DNA from: Candidatus Cloacimonadota bacterium
GTDB lineage: Bacteria > Cloacimonadota > Cloacimonadia > Cloacimonadales > Cloacimonadaceae
Assembly (NCBI GenBank): GCA_017995405.1
Contig: JAGOIY010000005.1
Span: forward strand, 1 to 33,325
Direction of reading: 5' to 3'
Length of the DNA stretch: 33,325 bases
A program made the translations under genes and the position numbers. Shown here piece by piece: positions 25,957 to 26,334 of the stretch. The notes under the pieces were generated by a model, which was given only the letters and a program-made list of their open reading frames with translations, did no database searches and was not told the origin of the DNA. Every line of letters starts with the position of its first letter. Position 1 is the first letter of the stretch.

Positions 25957-26032
25957 TGGTGGCGAAACCCAGAATCGAACTGGGGACACAAGGCTTTTCA
26001 GGCCTCTGCTCTACCGGCTGAGCTATCTCGCC
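25957..26032 (-). tRNA. tRNA-Phe (GAA)
   Basis: The minus strand folds as a 76-nt tRNA: acceptor GGCGAGA/TTTCGCC with one G-U pair, D-stem GCTC/GAGC, anticodon stem GAGGC/GCCTT with loop CTGAAAA (anticodon GAA, phenylalanine), a 5-nt variable region, T-stem CCCAG/CTGGG with loop TTCGATT, discriminator A, and an encoded CCA end. Upstream, a TTGACA (plus 26068-26073) resembles a -35 element, but I find no good -10. Confidence 0.98.
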
Positions 26033-26150
26033 ACCGAGTGAGACCAGTTTTTTTTTCTGCTGTTCCGTGTCAAGTCAAATCTGCAGCCATCCCTTTTCAC
26101 ACCTCTCGTTTTGGTGCATCAATAGTTGTCTCCACATTCTCTCTTAATAG

Positions 26151-26206
26151 CATTACGGTGTTATTACGGACTCATTACGGACTAAGTCCGTAATGAGTCC
26201 GTAATA
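26151..26206. repeat. 45-bp near-perfect palindrome with 11-bp phased ATTACGG half-sites
   Basis: Half-sites (C/T)ATTACGG start at 26151, 26162 and 26173, each 11 bp apart, and two inverted copies (CCGTAAT) follow at 26188 and 26199, again 11 bp apart. The segment 26162-26206 is a perfect inverted repeat of two 22-nt arms around a single central A at 26184. The third direct copy at 26151 lies outside the palindrome. It is intergenic, with no T-run, so it is not an ordinary terminator. Confidence 0.9.
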
Positions 26207-26334
26207 GGATTAAGGGCGGACTAAGCTTGAAATCAAGCTGGAAACTGGATACGATTCCTGGAAATGATCTCCTTGAGATGAATCACGCCAATCCTGCCCT
26301 TATCCCTTTATGCTGTCCCTGCCTGAGTCTCAGC

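What the first reader, a model, noticed from the sequence alone, without database searches (positions are those of the whole stretch)
26151..26206. 45-bp palindrome built from 11-bp phased ATTACGG half-sites in a gene-poor region
Five half-sites occur at a strict 11-bp step, three direct and two inverted, with a perfect 22-nt arm inverted repeat around one central base. Spacing near one helical turn is what a cooperatively binding protein or a replication/partition iteron would use. It could also be a dispersed repeat or transposable palindrome. It is intergenic and has no terminator tail.
Basis: partly seen in the sequence, partly recalled or inferred. Interest (0 to 1): 0.6.

Follow-up and report, generated by a model that had tools for sequence, protein, structure and literature searches.

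The report
Dispersed palindrome built of 11-bp units
The palindrome is real and is one of dozens of near-identical copies scattered between genes in a little-studied bacterial family (Cloacimonadaceae), where each species carries its own version of the 11-letter building block, so it looks like a previously undescribed kind of mobile DNA repeat rather than a single control switch or replication origin.

Summary
Observation confirmed: five 11-bp ATTACGG units (three direct, two inverted) form a perfect 22+1+22 palindrome inside an ~80-bp element (26139-26218), intergenic, without a T-tail. It is not unique. The same MAG has at least 13 copies. A covariance model finds the family in 21 of 107 genomes of the order, all of them Cloacimonadaceae, with more than 40 copies in many; other families of the order have none.
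Architecture is constant (palindrome, 2-4 units of exactly 11 bp per arm, pyrimidine/purine feet), but the unit sequence is species-specific. Unrelated units (TTAATCAAGCG, TATCACTTGTC, TTCCCATATCA, TATAACCTTAG, ATCATACCACT) form the same 11-bp-phased palindromes.
Copies are extragenic, indifferent to gene orientation, randomly spread on a complete chromosome, and lack target duplications. Duplicated copies whose flanks have diverged 15-28% keep cores 98-100% identical. IS3-family elements insert directly at their ends (G029 7/7, G013 6/8, G011 3/4).
Best reading: a new variant of REP/MITE-like dispersed palindrome, spread or homogenised by an unidentified trans-acting factor. A Y1 transposase is a correlated but unproven candidate. 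A set of cooperative protein-binding sites is the main rival. The origin/partition-iteron reading is not supported.

The parts
26139..26218 (.). complete dispersed element (5-unit form: 3 direct + 2 inverted 11-bp units plus feet)
   Evidence: covariance-model match 1-91/91, E 1e-10; boundaries from copies in relatives
26139..26151 (+). left foot, pyrimidine-rich, ending AGC (CTCTCTTAATAGC)
   Evidence: same position and composition in own-genome copies
26152..26162 (+). outer direct unit ATTACGGTGTT (unpaired with the right arm in this copy)
   Evidence: sequence
26163..26173 (+). direct unit ATTACGGACTC
   Evidence: sequence
26174..26184 (+). direct unit ATTACGGACT plus central base A
   Evidence: sequence
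26185..26195 (-). inverted unit AGTCCGTAATG
   Evidence: sequence
26196..26206 (-). inverted unit AGTCCGTAATA
   Evidence: sequence
26162..26206 (.). perfect inverted repeat, 22-nt arms, 1-nt centre
   Evidence: folds with MFE -39.8 kcal/mol, z -8.3
26207..26218 (+). right foot, purine-rich GGATTAAGGGCG (other own-genome copies: GGATGCGGG...)
25957..26032 (-). neighbour: tRNA-Phe (gaa)
   Evidence: ARAGORN, Rfam RF00005

Best explanation
The site is one copy of a family of dispersed, extragenic, non-coding palindromes of Cloacimonadaceae. Each copy is a hairpin-capable inverted repeat whose arms are tandem units of exactly 11 bp (about one helical turn), with pyrimidine- and purine-rich feet. 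SHOWN: copy number, architecture, extragenic random placement, species-specific units, conserved cores next to diverged flanks, absence of target-site duplication, and targeting of its ends by IS3-family elements. INFERRED: it is a non-autonomous, REP/MITE-like repeat, spread and kept homogeneous by a trans-acting DNA-binding enzyme that recognises the 11-bp units or the hairpin, probably in single-stranded form during replication. A Y1 (IS200/RAYT-type) transposase is the best current candidate. Patchy presence among sister species and a decayed relic in a species that lacks the family fit gain, bursts and loss.
For: 13 or more copies in the MAG; ~45-100 per genome in relatives. Limited to Cloacimonadaceae, 21/107 genomes of the order, patchy within genera. 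0 of 49 copies inside genes in 730 kb that is 86% coding; contexts match those of all spacers. Random placement on a complete chromosome. Each species has its own unit; 31 of 44 pairs change on both sides across species. An orthologous spacer has the palindrome in G017 but none in G022 or G029. A decayed relic sits at a site shared with intact copies in G029 and G063. No TSD. G013 copies with related left flanks (106/524 mismatches) have cores with only 4/420 mismatches. Full-length Y1_Tnp in 16/20 genomes with the repeat versus 6/28 without, p=9e-5; fam-A copies lie 3' of Y1 genes at six loci.
Against: No transposition event or closely related empty site was seen; only one species-level genome each is held. 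The window's own genome has no Y1_Tnp match (83% complete), and G013, G021 and G016 have only weak ones. The Y1 genes inspected are flanked by other, conventional REPs. A minority of sites are shared between genera more often than expected (15/63 versus 28/340), which a purely random mobile repeat would not predict, although spacer length and sampling confound this. The near-absence of mutations in cores could equally reflect selection for binding sites.
Confidence: 0.55

Rival explanations
1. Chromosomal binding sites: an architectural or regulatory DNA-binding protein binds cooperatively to the 11-bp phased units (3 per arm, dyad), and selection keeps the sites; the unit co-evolves with the protein in each species.
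For: 11-bp step; most core positions invariant in 29 G017 copies while specific positions vary freely and without arm covariation (observed pairing 0.59/0.62/0.52, against about 0.60/0.58/0.41 expected from the column frequencies); cores conserved beside diverged flanks; some orthologous sites retained with species-specific units.
Against: Random placement and spacing; no preferred gene context; whole genera and sister species lack it; most sites not shared between species.
Confidence: 0.25
2. RNA-level hairpin: transcription terminator, mRNA stabiliser or small RNA.
For: Very stable fold (window copy -39.8 kcal/mol, z -8.3; G017 copy -83 kcal/mol); 11 bp is also the A-form RNA repeat; compensatory changes across species.
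Against: No T-tail; as frequent between divergent genes as all other long spacers; few G:U intermediates; no Rfam match; variable positions within G017 do not covary.
Confidence: 0.08
3. Replication origin, terminus or partition iteron.
For: Phased iteron-like units.
Against: Tens of copies all round a complete chromosome, Rayleigh p=0.08, random spacing; not in plasmids, phages or viral contigs.
Confidence: 0.02
4. Accessory target or end of the IS3-family element (spread by that IS).
For: IS left end abuts the palindrome in G029 7/7, G013 6/8, G011 3/4, G017 1/1, G014 3/3.
Against: The palindrome is far more numerous than the IS; the IS end is absent from G000; the one complete IS has its own 3-bp duplication TAC and no palindrome at its other end; in G014 it sits beside two unrelated palindrome families.
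Confidence: 0.07

Closest known systems
REP sequences / REPINs mobilised by RAYT (Y1) transposases (PMC3116915, PMC2817692)
   Same: Short, extragenic, hairpin-forming, tens to hundreds of copies, species-specific sequence, randomly placed, non-autonomous, preferred IS targets; Y1 genes co-occur.
   Different: No GT(A/G)G head; one long near-perfect stem of up to 44 bp instead of a short bulged hairpin pair; arms made of 11-bp tandem units; not found flanking Y1 genes on both sides, and those genes carry other REPs.
Bacterial MITEs (general knowledge: Correia/NEMIS, RUP)
   Same: Non-coding inverted repeats of about 80-100 bp, dispersed between genes.
   Different: No target-site duplication; no autonomous element with the same ends found; arms internally repeated at 11 bp.
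REP-targeting insertion sequences such as IS1397, ISPsy8, ISPpu9 (PMC1525189)
   Same: An IS that inserts next to a dispersed palindrome with high selectivity.
   Different: Here it is an IS3-type element in a different phylum; it inserts at the outer end of the palindrome, always with the end upstream of orfA facing it.
Phased operator/iteron arrays (general knowledge)
   Same: Repeated sites about one helical turn apart, in direct and inverted orientation.
   Different: Tens of copies per genome without link to specific genes or origins.

Membership tests
REP/REPIN with RAYT | GT(A/G)G head at the base of the hairpin | tested here: not met
   Feet are CTCTCTTAATAGC/GGATGCGGG (G000), TGGCTCCCC/GGGCGA (G017), CTCCTTAGC/GCTAAGGGGGAAG (G013)
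REP/REPIN with RAYT | a Y1 transposase gene flanked on both sides by the repeat | tested here: not met
   Fam-A copies only on the 3' side at six Y1 loci; other Y1 loci have none; G000 has no Y1 match
REP/REPIN with RAYT | high-copy, extragenic, hairpin-forming repeats | tested here: met
MITE | terminal inverted repeats with target-site duplication | tested here: not met
   Direct-repeat test at every possible end position of 29 G017 copies stays near 0.25 beyond the element
MITE | autonomous relative with the same ends | tested here: inconclusive
   All complete copies seen in G000 and G011 have both arms adjacent; a systematic search in all genomes was not made
Intrinsic terminator | stem followed by T-tract, downstream of genes | tested here: not met
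Origin/partition iteron | one or a few clusters near origin, or on plasmids | tested here: not met
Protein-binding operator array | bound by a specific protein | not testable with these tools
   needs DNA-affinity or ChIP experiments

The most novel reading that the evidence does not exclude
Cloacimonadaceae carry a class of palindromes defined by geometry rather than sequence: every internally repeated long palindrome found has an 11-bp unit, while the unit sequence is freely exchangeable between families and species (several unrelated units share only an ATCA-like anchor). This would imply a trans-acting recogniser with one conserved contact and a reprogrammable 7-bp specificity, using helical phasing of about three units per arm.
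Probability: 0.3. Interest if true: 0.8.

Novelty: new variant of a known kind. Interest (0 to 1): 0.57.

Why it matters
Dispersed palindromes shape bacterial genomes, yet their origin and upkeep are known only for RAYT-linked REPs. A family with a fixed 11-bp geometry, species-specific and mutually unrelated units, cores conserved next to diverged flanks, and a role as selective landing site for an IS gives a clear comparative system. It could show whether such repeats are mobile parasites or protein-bound chromosomal sites, and it points to an unknown DNA-recognition protein in a phylum with almost no genetics.

Tried and rejected
(1) Origin/terminus/partition: rejected by random placement. 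(2) Terminator: no T-tail and no 3'-end bias. (3) Known RNA: only tRNA-Phe reaches its Rfam gathering score. (4) Virus/plasmid/phage origin: no matches. (5) Y1/RAYT as obvious owner: tested twice. Correlated with presence, but missing from the window's genome, and Y1 loci have their own REPs; kept as a candidate only. (6) Target-site duplication: none. (7) Conserved site at dGTPase/tRNA-Phe in the genus: not syntenic in G001-G005. (8) Stretches of G002 mostly read N and gave nothing. (10) The first exact-pattern scan of genome contigs found nothing; a degenerate one named G011 as HGW-Cloacimonetes-1. (11) Literature: no paper found that describes the repeat in Cloacimonadota; open-access library only.

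Full report
WHAT IS THERE. The element is longer than described. Comparison with other copies adds a pyrimidine-rich left foot and a purine-rich right foot, 26139-26218. It sits in the spacer between tRNA-Phe and a dGTPase-like gene.

COPIES. The exact 10-mer occurs 51 times in the 1.97-Mb, 83%-complete genome, in at least 13 palindromes; the reversed control pattern occurs 0 times. Relatives of the same family carry many more: G013 and G017 about 75-100, G011 about ten. G011 is HGW-Cloacimonetes-1, so the window is from the phylum Cloacimonadota. With a covariance model (A1/R1) the family is found in 21 of 50 Cloacimonadaceae genomes and in no genome of other families of the order. Counts from this tool are lower bounds because only a capped number of candidates is scored. 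Presence is patchy: only G000 in its own genus of six; six of 13 in genus g5, plus one genome (G022) with a degenerate copy only.

ARCHITECTURE. The 29 G017 copies have six units, three per arm: TGGCTCCCCTTATC-[AATACGGTGTC][AATACGGACTC][ATTACGGAC]xxx and the mirror image. G000 and G013 mostly have five units, G011 eight, G008/G021 eight. The two ends differ consistently (TGGC versus TCGC; positions 24, 26, 40, 42, 45 pair less often than chance), so the element has an orientation. No direct repeats flank it.

SPECIES-SPECIFIC UNITS. G017 uses AATACGGACTC, G029 AATACGGAATC, G064/G066 AATACGGGATC, G063 AATACGGAATA/C, G065 ATTGCGCGCTC, G008 ATTACGCTATC, G021 ATTACGGTAGC, G014 ATTGCTTACCC. Across species both arms change together: 31 of 44 pairs show changes on both sides, 89% of cells paired against 77% in shuffles and 30-42% in slid controls. 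Within G017, however, the freely varying second base of each unit shows pairing close to the value expected from independent arms (0.59, 0.62, 0.52 against about 0.60, 0.58, 0.41). So pairing as such is not what keeps the sequence (from; the expectations are my arithmetic from the column frequencies).

OTHER UNIT FAMILIES. A de novo search for long palindromes in the held DNA found several unrelated units: TTAATCAAGCG (G013, G066), TATCACTTGTC/TATCCACTGTC (G017), TTCCCATATCA (G014), TATAACCTTAG (G006), ATCATACCACT (G033), CCTGTCATCCN (G013). Every palindrome with any arm period of 5-16 at 60% identity or more had period 11 and no other. Four of the six units outside family A contain ATCA (about 8% expected each, P about 5e-4). 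This motif was noticed after looking, so it is a lead only.

PLACEMENT. In 730 kb of G017 and G013 (86% coding), 0 of 49 copies lie inside a gene; tandem, divergent and convergent contexts follow those of all spacers of 90 bp or more. On the complete G014 chromosome 43 copies are placed at random (Rayleigh p=0.08; spacing CV 0.84 against 0.97 random, p=0.16). Its length, 2,246,820 bp, matches my memory of Candidatus Cloacimonas acidaminovorans.

TURNOVER AND CONSTRAINT. One orthologous spacer has a copy in G017 and none in G022 or G029. Another is shared by G029, G063 and G022: intact with species-specific feet in the first two, decayed in G022, which has lost the family. Overall, a palindrome beside an orthologous gene side is found in 15 of 63 cases when the partner has one and 28 of 340 when it has not. 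Sampling and spacer length inflate this, so it shows only partial site conservation. In G013, copies that share a duplicated left flank differ at 106 of 524 flank positions but at 4 of 420 core positions (pairs are not independent). The core is therefore kept by selection or by homogenisation.

MOBILE-ELEMENT LINKS. An IS3-type element (OrfA plus rve OrfB, L174) has its left end directly outside the palindrome in G029 7/7, G013 6/8 (a seventh at 33 nt), G011 3/4, G017 1/1, G014 3/3; the G014 cases include two beside a different 11-bp palindrome. By chance each would have about 0.4% probability. The one complete copy has a TAC duplication. IS elements that target REPs are known (PMC1525189). 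In G013 a GTAG-footed REP lies within 150 bp of 12 of 24 palindromes (0.45 expected). Full-length Y1_Tnp genes occur in 16 of 20 genomes with the family and 6 of 28 without (p=9e-5; in genus g5 6/6 against 1/7, p=0.005), not corrected for phylogeny. At six Y1 loci a family-A palindrome lies 3' of the gene, 24 bp from the stop codon in L088. But these genes have their own REPs, and the window's genome shows no Y1 match.

INTERPRETATION. I file it as a dispersed extragenic palindrome that works like REP/MITE repeats but fails their defining tests (GT(A/G)G head, flanked RAYT, target duplication). It is therefore a new variant of a known kind, not a member of either. The step shown is dispersal, extragenic placement, turnover and core constraint. 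The step inferred is the enzyme or protein that recognises the 11-bp units. The main rival is a set of cooperative protein-binding sites that co-evolve with their protein.

Noticed in passing
L183, L174, L179 (G014); L178, L182, L280 (G029); L173 18758, L155 528, L048 119 (G013): IS3-family element with end TGTxxxGTCCTAAAWAAGTTGACAC inserts directly at the outer end of 11-bp palindromes, always with the orfA-proximal end facing the palindrome.
   Followed up: yes
L168 10338, L169 10032, L170 10111 (G013): About 10 bp of the IS end (TGTCCCGTCC) sits next to the palindrome without an IS, like a footprint or a natural flank that the IS end resembles.
   Followed up: no
G013 loci L155-L173, e.g. 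L160 7859: A second short palindrome with GTAG foot (GTAGCGCAGCATGCCGATGCTGCG) abuts one fixed side of the 11-bp palindrome in half the copies.
   Followed up: partly
L135 8368, L138 259, L139 7819, L151 2454 (G017); L156 13236 (G013); L299 3534 (G066); L329, L330 (G006); L307 2347 (G033); L289 14346 (G014): Further palindrome families with unrelated 11-bp units in the same bacterial family.
   Followed up: partly
L154 2324, L159 5148, L161 6589, L162 10330 (G013): Four copies share about 100 bp of left flank but no right flank, as if one side is co-duplicated.
   Followed up: partly
L088 1390-1950, L299, L300: Orthologous Y1/RAYT-like genes in three species each have an 11-bp palindrome on the 3' side, family A in two and family B in one.
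   Followed up: partly
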